Shown here piece after piece: positions 4,456 through 9,884 of a DNA stretch of 64,000 nucleotides (positions are counted from its first letter, which is position 1; the number at the start of each line of letters is the position of its first letter). Origin of the DNA: an uncultured Holdemania sp. (GTDB lineage: Bacteria; Bacillota_I; Bacilli_A; Erysipelotrichales; Erysipelotrichaceae); NCBI GenBank assembly GCA_904395815.1, contig CAJFOC010000008.1, positions 1 through 64,000 of the forward strand. The letters run 5' to 3'. The notes below the pieces were generated by a model, which saw only the letters and a program-made list of their open reading frames with translations, was not told the DNA's origin and searched no databases. Position numbers and translations under genes: made by a program.

Positions 4456-5832
4456 TTACGGCCTTTCTGTGTTGTTGGAATCCGTCGGAAACAGAAAACG
4501 GAACACACTGCCCTGCCCTGGTTCGCTTTCCACCTGAGCCTGACCGCCATGCACCTCGACAATCCATCGGACAATGGACAGCCCCAGGCCGGAACTTTCG
4601 CCATGCCGGCTCGATTCCGCCTTATAAAAACGATCCCAGATTCTTTCCTTGTCCGCCGCGCTGATTCCCACGCCGTTATCCCGGACGCCGATGACAATCT
4701 GACGATCATCCGCAGACAGTTCCACTTCAATCTGACCGCCCTGCGGCGTATAGCGGATGGCGTTTTCCAGCACATTGCCCAATAACTGCAGCATCAGCGT
4801 TTCATCCGCTTCCATCCATATTCCGGGCTGAATGCGGCTGACAAGAGTCTGCGCCTTGTCTTTGGCGGCCAGCTCTTTGAATTCCGCGCACACCGCTCCG
4901 CACAGCTCGCTCAGATTTGTTGTTTCACGCCGTACCGGCAGCCGTCCCTGATCCGCCCGCGACAGCATCAGCAGCTTGCCGATCATCCGGGACATCAGCT
5001 CGTTTTTACGGCGAAGCATCTGCAGGTCGTCCCGCACCTCTTCGCTCAGATCATCCCGGCTCAGCAAATCTTCCAGCGCCATGTTCATCGTCGTAACCGG
5101 CGTGCGCAGCTCATGCGCCACATCGCTGGTAAACTGTTTTTCCCGCCGGATGACGCTTTCCACCTCCGCCAGCAGTTCGTCAAAAGTACGGGCCAGTTCA
5201 TAGATTTCATCACGTCCGGCACCCAGACCGACCCGCTTGGACAGATCCCGGCTGGCCCGGATATCCTGAACGGCCGCGATCGTACGGGTCACCGGTCTCA
5301 TTGCCCGCCGGGACAAGAGATAACCGCACAGCGCCGTCAGAAGAATCAGCAATGGAAACAGGATCATCGCCGCCCGCAGCGCAAACTGAAACTCGCTCTG
5401 CGCCTGGTCGATGGAAACGATGCCGCGCACCATGACCGACTGATCCTGCGGCAGCGGCACGGTCATATCATAAACGTAATAGCGCGTGCTGCCGGATGCG
5501 ATCTGCCGCAGCGTATCTTCCGCAAAATCAAGACCGGAGTCAAAGCCATAGGGAATCCGGCCATACAGCAGTTCAGTGGAAGGCGGCTGGTAAGCGGACA
5601 GATAAATCCCGTCGCTGATCTCCAGAAAATCATTATCAAACCGCAGACTTCCGTGGACAACCTCGATATCGTCAAAGCTTTCATTGACCCGTTCTCTGAG
5701 CCGGCTTTGAACATTGGCCAGAATTTCACCGGAACTGATCGAAAACAACAATCCCAGCACCACCGCCGCCACCACCGTCATCATCAGCGTGTGCAGCAGA
5801 ACCAGCCGGCTTGTGATGGACAGACGCCTCAT
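4456..5832 (-). CDS. Two-component sensor histidine kinase
   Basis: The 458-residue membrane kinase has TM1 (about 9-33), an extracytoplasmic sensor of about 118 residues with no recognised fold, TM2 (about 152-173), a HAMP segment, a HisKA box 'SDVAHELRTPVTT' with phospho-acceptor H240, and an HATPase_c domain with N box ('NVLENAIRYTP'), G1 ('DNGVGIS') and G2 ('SGLGLSIVRWI'). Its ATG overlaps the response-regulator stop by 4 nt, and the PepSY protein gene lies ahead of both. I infer an envelope signal; PepSY domains elsewhere bind or inhibit peptidases or cell-wall factors, which fits that reading. Confidence 0.95.
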   Translation of the reverse strand: MRRLSITSRLVLLHTLMMTVVAAVVLGLLFSISSGEILANVQSRLRERVNESFDDIEVVHGSLRFDNDFLEISDGIYLSAYQPPSTELLYGRIPYGFDSGLDFAEDTLRQIASGSTRYYVYDMTVPLPQDQSVMVRGIVSIDQAQSEFQFALRAAMILFPLLILLTALCGYLLSRRAMRPVTRTIAAVQDIRASRDLSKRVGLGAGRDEIYELARTFDELLAEVESVIRREKQFTSDVAHELRTPVTTMNMALEDLLSRDDLSEEVRDDLQMLRRKNELMSRMIGKLLMLSRADQGRLPVRRETTNLSELCGAVCAEFKELAAKDKAQTLVSRIQPGIWMEADETLMLQLLGNVLENAIRYTPQGGQIEVELSADDRQIVIGVRDNGVGISAADKERIWDRFYKAESSRHGESSGLGLSIVRWIVEVHGGQAQVESEPGQGSVFRFLFPTDSNNTERP

Positions 5833-6500
5833 TCCTCTTTCAGCACATAGCCCATCCCGCGTACGGTATGGATCAGTTTCCTTTCATACGGGTCGTCAAT
5901 TTTCCTGCGCAGATAACGGATATAAACATCAATGACATTGGAAGAGCCGGAATAGTCAAAATCCCAGATGTGCTCTTCCAGCGTGCTGCGCGACAGCACA
6001 ATGCCGCTGTTGAGCATCATGTAGCGCAGCAGACTGAATTCCCGCGAGGACAAGGTGATCTTCTGTGAACCCCGCCGGACTTCACGCGTATCCTGATCCA
6101 GCGTCAGATCCCCTACGGTAAGCACGGCGCTGCGGTTTTGCGGCGGATTGCGCAGCAGAACCCGGATCCGCGCCAGCAACTCTTCAAAAGCGAACGGCTT
6201 GATCAGATAATCGTCCGCTCCGACATCCAGCCCCGTAACCCGATCTTCGACGCTGTCTCTGGCGCTCAGAAAAATCACCGGCATGGAATTCCCCTGCTGC
6301 CGCAGCTGCCGGACCAGACTCAGTCCGTCCTGCCGGGGCATCATGATATCCGTAATCATCAGATCATAATCGGCGCTGCTCAGATAATTCAGCGCTTCCT
6401 CTCCATCAAAACACCCGTCGGCCCCATAGCCTTCCTTTTTCAGACGACGCCGGATCAGCTCGTTCAGATCAGCATCGTCTTCCACTACCAGAATCCGCAT
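5829..6500 (-). CDS. OmpR/PhoB-family response regulator
   Basis: The 223 residues comprise a receiver domain (acidic pocket E7-D8-D9, phospho-acceptor D51 in 'MITDIMMPRQDG', 'FLSARD', 'IKPF') and a C-terminal winged-helix effector ('LSSREFSLLRYMM', 'VDVYIRYLRRKI'). It lies 3 bp after the PepSY-protein stop and overlaps the kinase start as ATGA. The direct repeat at 7388-7404 in front of the operon has the spacing bound by this family, so autoregulation is likely. The wider regulon is unknown. Confidence 0.96.
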   Translation of the reverse strand: MRILVVEDDADLNELIRRRLKKEGYGADGCFDGEEALNYLSSADYDLMITDIMMPRQDGLSLVRQLRQQGNSMPVIFLSARDSVEDRVTGLDVGADDYLIKPFAFEELLARIRVLLRNPPQNRSAVLTVGDLTLDQDTREVRRGSQKITLSSREFSLLRYMMLNSGIVLSRSTLEEHIWDFDYSGSSNVIDVYIRYLRRKIDDPYERKLIHTVRGMGYVLKEE

Positions 6501-6503
6501 TTC

Positions 6504-7340
6504 TCAATCCCAGCTTTCTGCACTCCATTCTACAACATTTCCGCTGGCCGCGTCGATAGTGAACTCGTATTCCATCCCGTTGTAGCGGATTTCCCCCTCA
6601 TAAACACGATATCCGTCGTCCATGTCTTCCCTGATGCGCAGATCGCTTTCCGTCGCGCCACTGACCCGGTTCAGCGCGATCGTCTTCGCCTGCTGCAGGG
6701 TGATGGCGGTTTCGGACGAGGCCGTTGCGGAAGGCCGGGCCGATTCCATGTCATAATCCCTGGATACGATGCGGCCGTCCTGCCGGGCAATTTCATAATC
6801 ATACTCCGTGTTGCCGGCATAAAATTCAATCTCATAGACGGCAACGCCATCCTCCTGATCCTGTTTTACCCGCACAAACGTCGCATCCGCCTCGCTGACG
6901 CCGGCATCCTGCAACGCGATGTTCCGTGCCTGATCTTCCGTAATCGCGTCGGTCAAAACAGAATCGGCTGTCTGCGGCTGATCCTTTGCCGCTTCGGCTG
7001 CCGGAGTATTGGCGGTAGTGCCGCCGCTTTGGCTGTCAAACGAAGAGCTGAGCACCTCGCCATTATCCCGCGCGATCTCATAGCGGTAGCTGGCCTGGGC
7101 AGTCGTAAAGGACACGTCATAGACTTCCTCTCCATACGCCTGTCCCGGCGCCACTCTCAGGGAGCTGACCTCGCTTTCACTGACGCCGGCATGGTTCAGC
7201 GCCGCCGCTTTGGCCGTATCCTGCGAAATCGGCCGGTGCGTCGCGGCATTCACCCCCAACGCAATCAGAAGGACAGCTGCCAGTCCGATGATAACCCCCA
7301 GCGCAATTCTGGCTGGTTTGGAATTGATGATGTTGTTCAT
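6504..7340 (-). CDS. Membrane-anchored protein with three PepSY domains
   Basis: From the chosen ATG the protein is 278 residues. It has a short cytoplasmic tail, one TM helix ('IALGVIIGLAAVLLIALGV'), then three PepSY repeats of about 60-65 residues outside the membrane. Each opens with an 'A..IAL..AGVSE' helix and ends in a 'Y.YEIA..DG.V' strand pair. Upstream in-frame ATG/GTG codons exist, but AGAGGAAAGG sits 9 nt before the ATG at 7340. It is the first gene of the operon with the response regulator and kinase. I infer that it is either the main output or an accessory sensor of this system. PepSY proteins are known as peptidase inhibitors and signal modulators. Confidence 0.9.
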   Translation of the reverse strand: MNNIINSKPARIALGVIIGLAAVLLIALGVNAATHRPISQDTAKAAALNHAGVSESEVSSLRVAPGQAYGEEVYDVSFTTAQASYRYEIARDNGEVLSSSFDSQSGGTTANTPAAEAAKDQPQTADSVLTDAITEDQARNIALQDAGVSEADATFVRVKQDQEDGVAVYEIEFYAGNTEYDYEIARQDGRIVSRDYDMESARPSATASSETAITLQQAKTIALNRVSGATESDLRIREDMDDGYRVYEGEIRYNGMEYEFTIDAASGNVVEWSAESWD

Positions 7341-7371
7341 GTGATTCATCCTTTCCTCTTGATCTGAGCTC

Positions 7372-7404
7372 ATTGTACCCATGCAAAATTAAAATCCGAT
7401 TAAA
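7372..7404 (-). promoter_or_regulatory. Response-regulator box and -10 of the PepSY-RR-HK operon
   Basis: On the minus strand TTTAAT-N5-TTTAAT (arms 7399-7404 and 7388-7393) has the exact 11-bp period of OmpR/PhoB-family direct repeats. It replaces a -35 element: the -10 TACAAT lies 10 bp downstream at 7372-7377 and no TTGACA-like hexamer is seen. This is the layout of a promoter activated by a bound regulator. Confidence 0.65.
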
Positions 7405-7562: not shown

Positions 7563-8351
7563 TCAGCCGGCCGCTTTCAATAACTGCTGATAAATCCGAA
7601 GATCTTCATCCTGAAACACATTGAAAATGACCCGCAGGCTCTCGTTCTTTTCGGCCAGAAAATGCCGGACAGTGTTTACCGCGATCTGCGCTGCCTCTTT
7701 TCGCGGAAAATGAAACTCGCCGGTGGAAATACAGCAGAAAGCGATACTTCGGCAATGGCTCTCTACGGCCAGCTGCAGACACGACCGGTAGCAGCTCGCC
7801 AGCAGTTCGCCGTCCTGCCGGGTCAGCGGATGATCGATGATCGGCCCCACAGTATGCAGGATGTATTTGCTGGGCAGATTGAAGGCCGGCGTCATTTTGG
7901 CTGTCCCGATCGGCTCAGGATGTCCCTGTTTTTCCATCATCTGATGACAGAACAGCCGCAACTGGATTCCGCTGCGGGAGTGAATGATGTTGTCAATGCA
8001 GGAGTGCAAAGGGTAAAAACAGCCCAGCATCCCACTGTTGGCCGCATTCACTATGGCATCCACCTTCAGCGTGGTGATATCGCCCTGCCACAGCACAAGC
8101 TGCGGTTCACCGGGGATGGGACTGAGCTGATCGCTGTCCACCACCCCGCGCTGATCCCGTTCCGCCTGCAGCAGCTGATCCTGCACCTGCAGTACCTTCG
8201 AGCTGATCGGAAGGGGCGGGCGCAGGTTCATCAGACTGCGCAGCAGATCCTGCTGCCGGCGCGGATCGTCAGGAATCGTTACCTCTTTGAACTGCGGCTG
8301 TTCTTTCAGCAGCTCGCGAATCAGAAAAATCCGCTGTTGTTGCAGATCCAT
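7563..8351 (-). CDS. Zinc-containing macrodomain protein (ADP-ribosyl hydrolase type)
   Basis: The 262 residues comprise an N-terminal helical extension (1-85) and a macrodomain with 'QGDITTLKVDAIVNAANSG' split by the insertion 'GCFYPLHSCIDNIIHSRSG'. The C111, H116 and C118 pattern matches zinc-dependent macrodomains of the kind that remove ADP-ribose from proteins in the SirTM systems of streptococci and staphylococci. The start at 8351 is set by AAGGAGGG six nt upstream. Here it stands alone with its own strong promoter next to an Rrf2 regulator; no SirTM sirtuin, GcvH-like or LplA partner lies nearby. Hydrolase activity is inferred from the motif. Confidence 0.9.
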   Translation of the reverse strand: MDLQQQRIFLIRELLKEQPQFKEVTIPDDPRRQQDLLRSLMNLRPPLPISSKVLQVQDQLLQAERDQRGVVDSDQLSPIPGEPQLVLWQGDITTLKVDAIVNAANSGMLGCFYPLHSCIDNIIHSRSGIQLRLFCHQMMEKQGHPEPIGTAKMTPAFNLPSKYILHTVGPIIDHPLTRQDGELLASCYRSCLQLAVESHCRSIAFCCISTGEFHFPRKEAAQIAVNTVRHFLAEKNESLRVIFNVFQDEDLRIYQQLLKAAG

Positions 8352-8432
8352 CGGGATCCCTCCTTCATTTGTAGCGGCCCTGTTTCTCTGAAAAGCCCAC
8401 ATCCAGCCCTCATCGCCTTAATATCCATGGGA

Positions 8433-8461
8433 AGTATAGCTTCCTTGTATTGTAATGCCAA
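8433..8461 (-). promoter_or_regulatory. Strong sigma-A promoter of the macrodomain gene
   Basis: Minus-strand TTGGCA (8456-8461) and TATACT (8433-8438) have the ideal 17-bp spacer, about 80 bp before the macrodomain ATG. An 8-bp inverted repeat (8483-8490 with 8499-8506) lies just upstream at the end of the Rrf2 gene. It lacks a T tract and may be a regulator site. Confidence 0.75.
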
Positions 8462-8495
8462 TAGTTACAACAACACTTTTTTCAACGCGCCTGTT

Positions 8496-8945
8496 TCAGC
8501 GCGTTGTCGTCAGTTCACTGTTGCAGCGGCGCAGATCCCTCATCATCTGATCGAGCGTCATTCCCTTCAGTTCGTCTTCCATCGCCTGCTGCACCTGCAG
8601 CAAGCGTCCATCCAGCACCTTGTGGATATGGCGTCCTGCCGGGCACTTTGGATTGGGATGTTCATGAAAATGAAAGAGCTGTCCTTCCTCCACACAGTCC
8701 ACCGCCCGGTATACATCATAAAAACGGATGTCTGAATACGGCCGGGCCGCGCTGGCTCCGCCGCTGCCGCGCCGCACGACAATCAGACCGGCCTGTTTCA
8801 GCTGTGCGAGAATCCGGCGAATGATCACCGGATTGACCTGAATGCTTTCCGCCAGAAATTCACTGGTGATTTTTTGGCGCCCGCCAAAGATCTCGATACA
8901 GGCGAAAATATGAAGCGCTATGGTAAATCGACTTGTAATCTGCAT
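8496..8945 (-). CDS. Rrf2-family transcriptional regulator
   Basis: The 149 residues carry an N-terminal winged helix-turn-helix ('FTIALHIFACIEIF', 'SEFLAESIQVNPVIIRRIL', 'GSGGASAARP'). It resembles the YwnA-like branch. Only one cysteine of an Fe-S type loop is visible ('NPKCPAGRH'), so it probably does not carry the IscR cluster. It lies just upstream of, and co-directional with, the macrodomain gene, whose own promoter is within 40 bp of this stop codon. I infer it may control the macrodomain gene and itself; the signal is unknown. Confidence 0.9.
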   Translation of the reverse strand: MQITSRFTIALHIFACIEIFGGRQKITSEFLAESIQVNPVIIRRILAQLKQAGLIVVRRGSGGASAARPYSDIRFYDVYRAVDCVEEGQLFHFHEHPNPKCPAGRHIHKVLDGRLLQVQQAMEDELKGMTLDQMMRDLRRCNSELTTTR

Positions 8946-8998: not shown

Positions 8999-9835
8999 TC
9001 AGCCATTGCCTGAGGTCACTTCGCTTTCCAACGCCCGGGCCAGCGCTTCCGCCACGCTGCCGACCGACTGATGCGCCCGGCTCAGTACCTGGGCTGAAGC
9101 ATGATCCATGCAGTAGCTCAGCGGCACCGCTTCAAACATCGTTACATCGTTTTCGTTGTCGCCGACAACCGCAATCTCATCCAGCGAAAGATGCAGTCCT
9201 TCCGCCAGTGCCCGTACGCCGGCTCCCTTGTTGATGCCTCGCGGGCTGATATCCTGCATATCCACATCCGAAGCCGCGATTTCAAACCGATCCGCAAAGG
9301 ACTGATGCAATAGCCGCGAAGCCAGCGCATGCTGAGAAGGTTCGACAAACAGGCTGATTTTGCTGCAGCGGCCCTGATGAAAAGGCTGCATCGGTTCAAA
9401 CGTAAGCCGCCACTGCTTGCGGATCTGTGGACATCCCGGAGGCAGCAGCTGCGGATACTGATCCATCCGTCCATATCCCAGCGAGGTGCCATCCTCCATC
9501 GTCGTCACCAGCGTCCCGTTCAGTCCGCTTTTTTCCATCCAGGCTGCCAGTTCCCGGAACTCCTCCACCGACATCCAATGCTGATCCAGAATTTCCCCCT
9601 GTTCATTCACAGTCGTAAATCCGTTCAGCGCAATCATGCAGACCGGAAATCCTATCTGCTGTTCAATCATCTGCCGGGCATCCAGCCCCCGCGAGCTGGC
9701 GATGGCGACATGACCGCCCTGCCGGTAAAACTCTCTGAGCGCCCGCCGGTTCTGTTCGCTGACTCCGGCTGACATCTCATTGCCTATCTTCAAAAGCGTT
9801 CCGTCCAGATCGCTGACCAGACACTTGATTCTCAT
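8999..9835 (-). CDS. HAD-IIB (Cof-type) phosphatase
   Basis: The 278 residues show the HAD motifs DLDGT near the N terminus (nucleophile Asp), 'ASSRG' (motif II), a lysine in 'GINKGAGVRAL' and 'VVGDNENDVTMFEA' (motifs III/IV). The large C2B cap between motifs II and III places it with the Cof/YidA-type sugar-phosphate or cofactor phosphatases. The exact substrate cannot be read from sequence. A GTG one codon upstream is possible, but AGGAG is 7 nt before the ATG at 9835. It stands between an Rrf2 gene and a carboxypeptidase gene with no clear functional tie. Confidence 0.93.
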   Translation of the reverse strand: MRIKCLVSDLDGTLLKIGNEMSAGVSEQNRRALREFYRQGGHVAIASSRGLDARQMIEQQIGFPVCMIALNGFTTVNEQGEILDQHWMSVEEFRELAAWMEKSGLNGTLVTTMEDGTSLGYGRMDQYPQLLPPGCPQIRKQWRLTFEPMQPFHQGRCSKISLFVEPSQHALASRLLHQSFADRFEIAASDVDMQDISPRGINKGAGVRALAEGLHLSLDEIAVVGDNENDVTMFEAVPLSYCMDHASAQVLSRAHQSVGSVAEALARALESEVTSGNG

Positions 9836-9884
9836 CACAACTCTCCTCTCCCTGATTTTTATTCTATCGAAAATTCACAAAAAG

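What the first reader, a model, noticed from the sequence alone, without database searches (positions are those of the whole stretch)
7563..8461. Stand-alone zinc macrodomain ADP-ribosyl hydrolase with its own strong promoter and an Rrf2 neighbour
The C111/H116/C118 insertion matches zinc-dependent macrodomains usually found with a SirTM sirtuin, GcvH-L and LplA2. None of these partners is present, and an Rrf2 regulator sits upstream. The hydrolase may act on ADP-ribosylation from another source such as toxins, phage enzymes or nucleic-acid ADP-ribosylation.
Basis: partly seen in the sequence, partly recalled or inferred. Interest (0 to 1): 0.5.

Follow-up and report, generated by a model that had tools for sequence, protein, structure and literature searches.

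The report
Redox-switched eraser split from its writer
This gene makes a zinc enzyme that probably removes ADP-ribose tags from proteins; the enzyme that probably adds the tags is encoded elsewhere in the same genome, and the eraser appears to have its own stress-responsive on/off switch, an arrangement that differs from the textbook operon.

Summary
The macrodomain, its zinc motif (C111/H116/C118), its promoter and the Rrf2 neighbour are all there. An intact SirTM lies on another contig (C1:37758-38663, E 1e-145), at least 25 kb away, and the window's gene is the only macrodomain match in the genome. The best reading is a SirTM/Zn-Macro writer-eraser pair encoded in trans. Similar splits recur in other Firmicutes genomes. 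Pfam's SIR2 model misses this SirTM; a purpose-built profile found it.

The Rrf2 regulator belongs to the system. The macro promoter carries TTGTAACTATTGGCATTACAA (8450-8470), which overlaps the -35 box and is the only perfect TTGTAA-N9-TTACAA in 2.02 Mb. Relatives carry the same site ([A/T]TGTAAC TATTGACA TTACAA). A scan of 397 genomes of a Lachnospiraceae family, not selected for macrodomains, found 48 exact sites against 0 for the reversed control; 26 of 30 inspected lie within 1.5 kb of Rrf2, Zn-Macro or SirTM (24 of the 28 not seen before). In this genome the site was found at the eraser's promoter and not at SirTM's. I infer a HypR-like thiol switch raising the eraser under oxidative stress. 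Activity, binding and substrate are untested. New variant of a known system.

The parts
7563..8351 (-). Zn-macrodomain ADP-ribosyl hydrolase (Zn-Macro) CDS, 262 aa (start at 8402 not excluded); Zn ligands C111 (8021-8019), H116 (8006-8004), C118 (8000-7998); D120/H124 pair
8433..8461 (-). sigma-70-type promoter of the Zn-Macro gene: -35 TTGGCA (8461-8456), 17-bp spacer, -10 TATACT (8438-8433)
   Evidence: alone not above chance; a -10 at promoter spacing follows 11 of 12 exact sites in the 80 loci, 28 of 32 in the 30 scan loci and 4 of 6 in the family scan
8450..8470 (.). inferred Rrf2 operator, palindrome TTGTAA-N9-TTACAA overlapping the -35 box
   Evidence: perfect and unique in the 2.02 Mb genome; recurs in Rrf2-linked loci; scans not selected for macrodomains
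8496..8945 (-). Rrf2-family regulator, 149 aa, YwnA/HypR-like, with Cys16 and Cys101 conserved in most relatives
8999..9838 (-). HAD (Cof-type) hydrolase just upstream of Rrf2, possibly co-transcribed with it; next to dacA here and in three congeners, which lack Rrf2-Macro there
   Evidence: co-transcription is inference from the 53-bp gap

Best explanation
The gene encodes the eraser of a SirTM/Zn-Macro mono-ADP-ribosylation switch whose writer (SirTM) is encoded in trans on another contig. The eraser, together with an adjacent Rrf2-family regulator, sits in a separately controlled block. Rrf2 binds the palindrome over the -35 box and blocks transcription; oxidation of its conserved cysteines (by analogy with HypR) releases it, so thiol or oxidative stress raises the hydrolase and strips ADP-ribose from SirTM targets. 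Shown here: the protein family and catalytic residues, the intact SirTM and no second macrodomain, the unique operator, and the recurrent Rrf2-operator-Macro/SirTM association. Inferred: that macro and SirTM act on the same target, that Rrf2 binds this operator, that it represses, and that it senses oxidation. The target is unknown (no GcvH-L was found).
For: Family and residues. Only macrodomain match in the genome. SirTM at C1:37758-38663, 301 aa, with TQGD where canonical sirtuins keep HG, matching the 'H replaced by QG' of class M (PMC4518038 passages). C1 and window agree in 4-mer make-up (0.10-0.11, against 0.25-0.54 for six foreign loci). Relatives: 61 of 80 loci hold a SirTM match, some partial; 22 of 26 family loci, the window's included as a miss. 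Split pairs recur: of 14 SirTM-less loci with at least 1.5 kb on both sides, 8 genomes carry a near-full SirTM on another contig, 7 of these with no macro in the fetched flank. Rrf2: 12 of 80 loci carry a homolog at E<1e-30. Exact operator in 10 of 12 Rrf2-linked against 0 of 68 other loci, Fisher p 4e-11, optimistic because the pattern was drawn from these loci. Scans not selected for macrodomains: 6 sites in 145 family genomes, 4 within 1 kb of Rrf2, the window's own included; 48 sites in 397 genomes against 0 for the reversed pattern, 26 of 30 inspected within 1.5 kb of Rrf2, macro or SirTM, 24 of 28 without the two loci already seen.
Against: The operator is not found upstream of SirTM in this genome, so writer and eraser are not co-regulated by it here. 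The second palindrome seen downstream in several relatives is absent. No biochemistry has been done. The substrate is unknown, and the published MorMacro from a lone pair did not demodify GcvH-L (PMC11490716 passages). The genome is 94.7% complete in 63 contigs. Writer families other than SirTM and DarT were not searched. In the 7 split relatives no search for further macrodomains was made. Some genomes keep Zn-Macro with no near-full SirTM found (G090, 99% complete; G152 and G163, completeness not told), so a SirTM-independent role may exist. 4 of 30 inspected operator sites have none of the three genes nearby.
Confidence: 0.68

Rival explanations
1. The Zn-Macro is functionally free-standing: it removes ADP-ribose put on by toxins, phage enzymes or nucleic-acid ADP-ribosyltransferases and does not serve the SirTM.
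For: It is not linked to SirTM here; several relatives keep the macro with only SirTM fragments or divergent matches (G146, G151, G158, G161) or none (G152, G163), or with only a weak 22-bit match (G090). The Zn-Macros tested by Ariza 2024 all demodified Glu/Asp-ADP-ribosylated PARP1 (PMC11490716 passages).
Against: A full-length SirTM is present; DarT was not found. Other ADP-ribosyltransferase families were not searched, so this is not decisive.
Confidence: 0.15
2. SirTM and Zn-Macro were acquired separately and each serves its own target; the Rrf2-Macro block is a horizontally acquired stress module inserted after dacA-had and has not been wired to the resident SirTM.
For: The closest macro relatives are Lachnospiraceae/Oscillospiraceae at 65-67% identity, while congeners G035/G078/G104 have a 52-54% macro paired with SirTM; the congeners' dacA-had lacks Rrf2-Macro. 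The operator precedes only the macro.
Against: The SirTM here is also nearer to Clostridia SirTMs (best 71%, L020) than to the congeners' (53-61%), so both parts may share a source; but same-family G113 reaches 67%, so the origin of SirTM is unresolved. No alternative eraser of the macrodomain kind was found.
Confidence: 0.12
3. The Rrf2 regulates the macro but senses iron, an Fe-S cluster or a metabolite rather than thiol oxidation. (A rival on the signal only; it can hold together with the trans pair.)
For: Rrf2 family breadth (IscR, NsrR, CymR; recalled). NCBIfam HypR score is only 50.5 bits against a cut-off of 180. Some companion genes carry 4Fe-4S domains. A third cysteine, C84, is present in 14 of 20 rows.
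Against: IscR-type regulators carry three closely spaced ligands (recalled); here only C101, with C84 in part of the rows, lies in that region, and C16 is the other conserved one (17 of 20; C101 19 of 20). Closest solved relatives are 1ylf and YwnA.
Confidence: 0.25

Closest known systems
Zn-Macro / SirTM two-gene operon (MorMacro of Methanobrevibacter oralis; lone SirTM/Zn-Macro pairs; PMC11490716, PMC4518038)
   Same: Same macrodomain subfamily with Zn ligands, Dx3H and N-terminal extension; a SirTM with QG in place of the catalytic His is in the same genome
   Different: The two genes are unlinked; the eraser has its own promoter, operator and Rrf2 neighbour. The 2015 paper states that in bacteria the two lie adjacent within one operon
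Extended SirTM operon of Staphylococcus/Streptococcus (GcvH-L, LplA2, OYE, LLM)
   Same: Same writer and eraser enzyme classes; inferred oxidative-stress setting
   Different: No GcvH-L found (one GcvH, beside GCV genes); no operon; inferred Rrf2 control of the eraser
HypR-MerA of Staphylococcus aureus (Rrf2 repressor inactivated by Cys33-Cys99' disulfide; PMC10715087 passages)
   Same: Rrf2-family regulator next to its inferred target, two mostly conserved cysteines, redox-type companion genes in relatives
   Different: Below the HypR model's cut-off; target is an ADP-ribosyl hydrolase and not a flavin disulfide reductase; sensing untested; HypR's operator could not be compared

Membership tests
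Zn-Macro (zinc-dependent MacroD-type macrodomain, NF003163/PRK04143) | scores above the curated family cut-off | tested here: met
   363.6 bits against 272
Zn-Macro (zinc-dependent MacroD-type macrodomain, NF003163/PRK04143) | C-x4-H-x-C zinc loop followed by Dx3H | tested here: met
   C111, H116, C118, D120, H124; aligned with 8rsi, 5kiv, 8rsm
Zn-Macro (zinc-dependent MacroD-type macrodomain, NF003163/PRK04143) | N-terminal 3-alpha bundle needed for zinc binding | tested here: met
   by sequence alignment only: query 17-275 (279-aa numbering) aligns with chain 2-259 of 8rsi, N-terminal part included; structure not modelled
Zn-Macro (zinc-dependent MacroD-type macrodomain, NF003163/PRK04143) | zinc-dependent hydrolysis of protein ADP-ribosylation | not testable with these tools
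   needs assay
SirTM/Zn-Macro operon (bacterial class M sirtuin pair) | SirTM and macro genes adjacent in one operon | tested here: not met
SirTM/Zn-Macro operon (bacterial class M sirtuin pair) | a SirTM with catalytic H replaced by QG is in the genome | tested here: met
   L152:9759-10664, motif TQGD, E 1e-145 against SirTM profile A1
Extended SirTM operon | GcvH-L carrier beside SirTM/macro | tested here: not met
   only one GCV_H match in the genome, 128 aa, on C45 beside gcvT and gcvP genes
Extended SirTM operon | LplA2 ligase beside SirTM/macro | tested here: inconclusive
   none of the 6 neighbours of macro and Rrf2 examined is a ligase; genes beside SirTM were seen as translations only; no genome-wide LplA search was made
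HypR (Rrf2 redox repressor, NF041852) | scores above the curated family cut-off | tested here: not met
   50.5 bits against 180
HypR (Rrf2 redox repressor, NF041852) | two redox cysteines | tested here: inconclusive
   C16 in 17 of 20 and C101 in 19 of 20 distinct rows; equivalence with HypR C33/C99 not established
HypR (Rrf2 redox repressor, NF041852) | oxidant-dependent release from its operator | not testable with these tools
   needs gel-shift

The most novel reading that the evidence does not exclude
Across gut Firmicutes a dedicated Rrf2 thiol-switch regulator with the operator [A/T]TGTAAC TATTGACA TTACAA controls SirTM-type mono-ADP-ribosylation together with flavin/Fe-S redox genes. 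In this genome the control has been narrowed to the eraser alone, so oxidative stress resets the modification without changing writer synthesis.
Probability: 0.4. Interest if true: 0.62.

Novelty: new variant of a known kind. Interest (0 to 1): 0.5.

Why it matters
[quoted passage not shown] passages). A recurrent, promoter-overlapping operator tied to a defined regulator gives a direct handle: it suggests a signal class (thiol or oxidative stress), offers a regulon in which to look for the target (PNPOx-like flavoproteins with or without 4Fe-4S domains, NAD(P)-binding, SnoaL-like and nitroreductase proteins), and shows that eraser and writer can be uncoupled. It also warns that a 'lone' Zn-Macro should not be called writer-less on its neighbourhood or on a Pfam SIR2 search.

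Tried and rejected
GCV_H found one GcvH, in a GCV gene cluster. DarT (PF14487): none; its control rang in 1 of 14 genomes.

Artefact checks: contig C1 being foreign was considered and rejected on 4-mer make-up. The loose pattern with other gap lengths (4-8 and 10-14) gave 2-8 hits against 30 for the 9-base gap; 6 of those 30 (L036, three in L037, L049, L061) lie in loci without the Rrf2 and look like chance. In the own genome the 1-mismatch pattern gave 5 further places against 4 for its reversed control, so only the perfect site is counted. With 2 mismatches the window holds 3 matches, 1.07 expected. The promoter scan alone was not above chance. The tree does not place the window's macro in any strongly supported small group, so horizontal transfer is only inferred. 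Two of the 30 inspected operator sites (L218, L222) turned out to be loci already used to draw the pattern (L017, L038); counts without them are given. The HypR paper of 2018 (PMC6067689) is not held, so HypR's own operator could not be compared. Literature: eight searches. Those aimed at the link, 'macrodomain + Rrf2' (3 papers; one opened for passages, two seen in the listing only), 'sirtuin/macrodomain/Rrf2' (168 papers, 15 listed), 'Rrf2 + pyridoxamine + ferredoxin + operator' (0) and 'SirTM / Zn-Macro since 2024' (14 listed), showed no paper describing it; this covers open-licence PMC only. No structure was predicted, since solved relatives cover most of the length.

Full report
Observation. 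The ORF ending at 7563 on the minus strand is a full-length Zn-macrodomain protein, 262 aa from the ATG at 8351. It passes the curated cut-off of NCBIfam NF003163 (363.6 against 272 bits) and aligns over most of its length with the solved Zn-Macros 8rsi, 5kiv/8rsl and 8rsm. C111, H116, C118, D120 and H124 are in place. The start at 8351 follows AAGGAGGG; the upstream ATG at 8402 has the weaker GAGGG and is not excluded. The promoter TTGGCA-17-TATACT lies at 8461-8433 and the Rrf2 gene at 8945..8496.

Writer. Pfam SIR2 found only a canonical sirtuin. I made a SirTM alignment of 13 sirtuins, 12 of them within about 0.5 kb of a Zn-Macro gene and one (L083) about 5 kb away (A1). It finds an intact 301-aa SirTM at C1:37758-38663 in the same genome (E 1e-145), with the signature TQGD. 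Rack 2015 states that class M has QG in place of the catalytic His (passages). PF01661 gave one match in the whole genome, the window's. From contig lengths the two genes are at least 25 kb apart. C1 and the window share 4-mer make-up. So writer and eraser are both present but unlinked.

How unusual is the split? Of the 19 without, 5 are cut within 0.9 kb of the macro by a contig end; 14 have at least 1.5 kb on both sides. In the genomes of those 14 a near-full SirTM lies elsewhere in 8 (G145, G150, G153, G156, G157, G159, G160, G164), only fragments or divergent matches in 4 (G146, G151, G158, G161) and none in 2 (G152, G163). Of the 8, one SirTM (G159) has a macro beside it and 7 have none in the fetched flank of up to 1.5 kb (in G150 the contig ends within SirTM); contig lengths show that these SirTMs and macros are on different contigs. 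In the window's own family, of 26 fetched loci with full or near-full macros (L084-L109; two more places in G134 were not fetched), 22 have SirTM adjacent or within about 1.1 kb; the 4 without are this genome, G011 (SirTM about 6 kb away), G003 (contig start; SirTM on another contig) and G090 (only a 22-bit match, in a 99% complete genome). On a quick tree of 105 macros the label 'no SirTM within 1.5 kb', which includes contig-cut loci, needs 16 changes at the minimum, 6 of them forced by well-supported branches. The split is therefore recurrent. It is not described in what I read of the two key papers: outline, passages and sections 5 (part 1) and 11 of PMC11490716 and passages of PMC4518038.

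Regulator. A close Rrf2 homolog (E<1e-30) is in 12 of 80 loci, in varying order with macro and SirTM. In 145 family genomes the Rrf2 subfamily (E<1e-40) occurs in 7, this genome included; all 7 hold a Zn-Macro (partial at contig ends in G071 and G003). In G000, G090, G057 and G125 it lies within 1 kb of the macro, in G011 beside SirTM, and in G003 and G071 on another contig.

Operator. Between Rrf2 and macro lies TTGTAACTATTGGCATTACAA (8470-8450), with perfect 6-base arms around 9 bases that hold the -35 box. It is the only perfect TTGTAA-N9-TTACAA in the 2.02-Mb genome. In the 80 loci (991 kb) the 9-base gap gives 30 hits with at most one mismatch, 5 of them perfect; the other gaps from 4 to 14 give 2-8 and 0. 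The full site WTGTAAN3TTGNCATTACAA occurs exactly in 10 of 12 Rrf2-linked loci and 0 of 68 others (Fisher p 4e-11); at up to 2 mismatches in 12 of 12 and 2 of 68. The pattern was drawn from these loci, so that p value is optimistic. A -10-like hexamer at 16-18 bases follows 11 of 12 exact sites in the 80 loci, 28 of 32 in the 30 scan loci and 4 of 6 in the family scan. Several loci have a second palindrome 42-49 bp further on; the window lacks it. I then scanned genomes not chosen for holding a macro. In 145 family genomes there are 6 sites in 5 genomes: the window, G090 and G057 near Rrf2-macro, G071 upstream of a SnoaL-like gene and Rrf2, G057 again upstream of a similar SnoaL-like gene, and one chance-like site in G086; the reversed pattern gave none. 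In 397 genomes of the family of G145 (the genome of L004, Candidatus Scatomonas, Lachnospiraceae), 48 sites lie in 38 genomes, with 0 for the reversed pattern. Of 30 sites fetched (of 48), 19 have Rrf2 at E<1e-30 and 3 more at 4e-23 to 2e-29, 14 have macro or SirTM, 26 have at least one of the three, one has only a PNPOx-ferredoxin gene and 3 have none of the genes looked for. Two of the 30 are loci already among the 80 (L218 = L017, L222 = L038); without them it is 24 of 28. The other 18 sites were not inspected. Companion genes in Rrf2-linked loci are PNPOx-like flavoproteins with or without 4Fe-4S domains, NAD(P)-binding and nitroreductase proteins. The site is not found upstream of the window genome's SirTM.

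Mechanism. Rrf2 has Cys16 in 17 of 20 and Cys101 in 19 of 20 distinct rows, Cys84 in 14; its nearest solved relatives are 1ylf and YwnA. S. aureus HypR, an Rrf2 repressor, is inactivated by an intersubunit disulfide (PMC10715087 passages). I infer that Rrf2 represses the macro promoter by covering the -35 box and is released by thiol oxidation, raising the hydrolase, which then removes SirTM-installed ADP-ribose. Binding, sensing, activity and target are all unproven. GcvH-L, the only SirTM target known to Ariza 2024 (passages), was not found; there is one GcvH in a GCV cluster.

Origin. The macro's nearest relatives are Lachnospiraceae and Oscillospiraceae (65-67% identity for the best six of 80; near relatives of the window's own genome may have been left out by the tool). 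Congeners carry a 52-54% macro paired with SirTM in a separate supported clade. In three congeners dacA-had is conserved but Rrf2-macro is not beside it. Acquisition of an Rrf2-macro block is the simplest reading; loss in the congeners is not excluded. The genome's SirTM is nearest to L020 (71%), with the congeners' at 53-61% but same-family G113 at 67%, so its origin is unresolved.

Verdict. It is a known enzyme in a new genetic arrangement, with a recurrent regulatory site that makes the open question of what triggers SirTM/Zn-Macro signalling testable.

Noticed in passing
L122/L147 (G156:C22), L125/L148 (G162:C11), L129 (G145:C4): An ATPase gene of about 424 aa (AAA_14/DUF4143 by Pfam in L147; by eye in L148 and L129) follows SirTM and is itself followed by a copy of the SirTM C-terminus; in G162 a second copy follows a different gene. 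Three copies compared are 80-85% identical in DNA to the full gene's end over 39-190 bases and begin at or near the same 'NTP' codons. It looks like genes inserting into the 3' end of sirTM and carrying a replacement end.
   Followed up: partly
L044:6724-7974, L008:4471-4878, L075:8236-9432: AAA_14/DUF4143-type ATPases also sit between or beside Rrf2, Zn-Macro and SirTM genes (L044 confirmed with Pfam; the other two by eye).
   Followed up: partly
L105 (G090), L026 (G152), L065 (G163): Candidate eraser-only genomes: a Zn-Macro but no near-full SirTM found; in G090 (99% complete) the macro has Rrf2 and the operator. Completeness of G152 and G163 is not told.
   Followed up: partly
L192:1605-2378, L189:1608-2378: A SnoaL-like protein of about 257 aa is preceded by the same operator in two genomes, so the inferred Rrf2 regulon reaches beyond ADP-ribosylation.
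   Followed up: partly
L136 (G165:C2), L143 (G145:C21): Two divergent SirTM-like ORFs side by side near a different Rrf2 homolog (E 3e-18 and 4e-20).
   Followed up: no
window 4456-7382: A two-component pair and a PepSY-domain protein lie directly downstream of the macro gene on the same strand.
   Followed up: no
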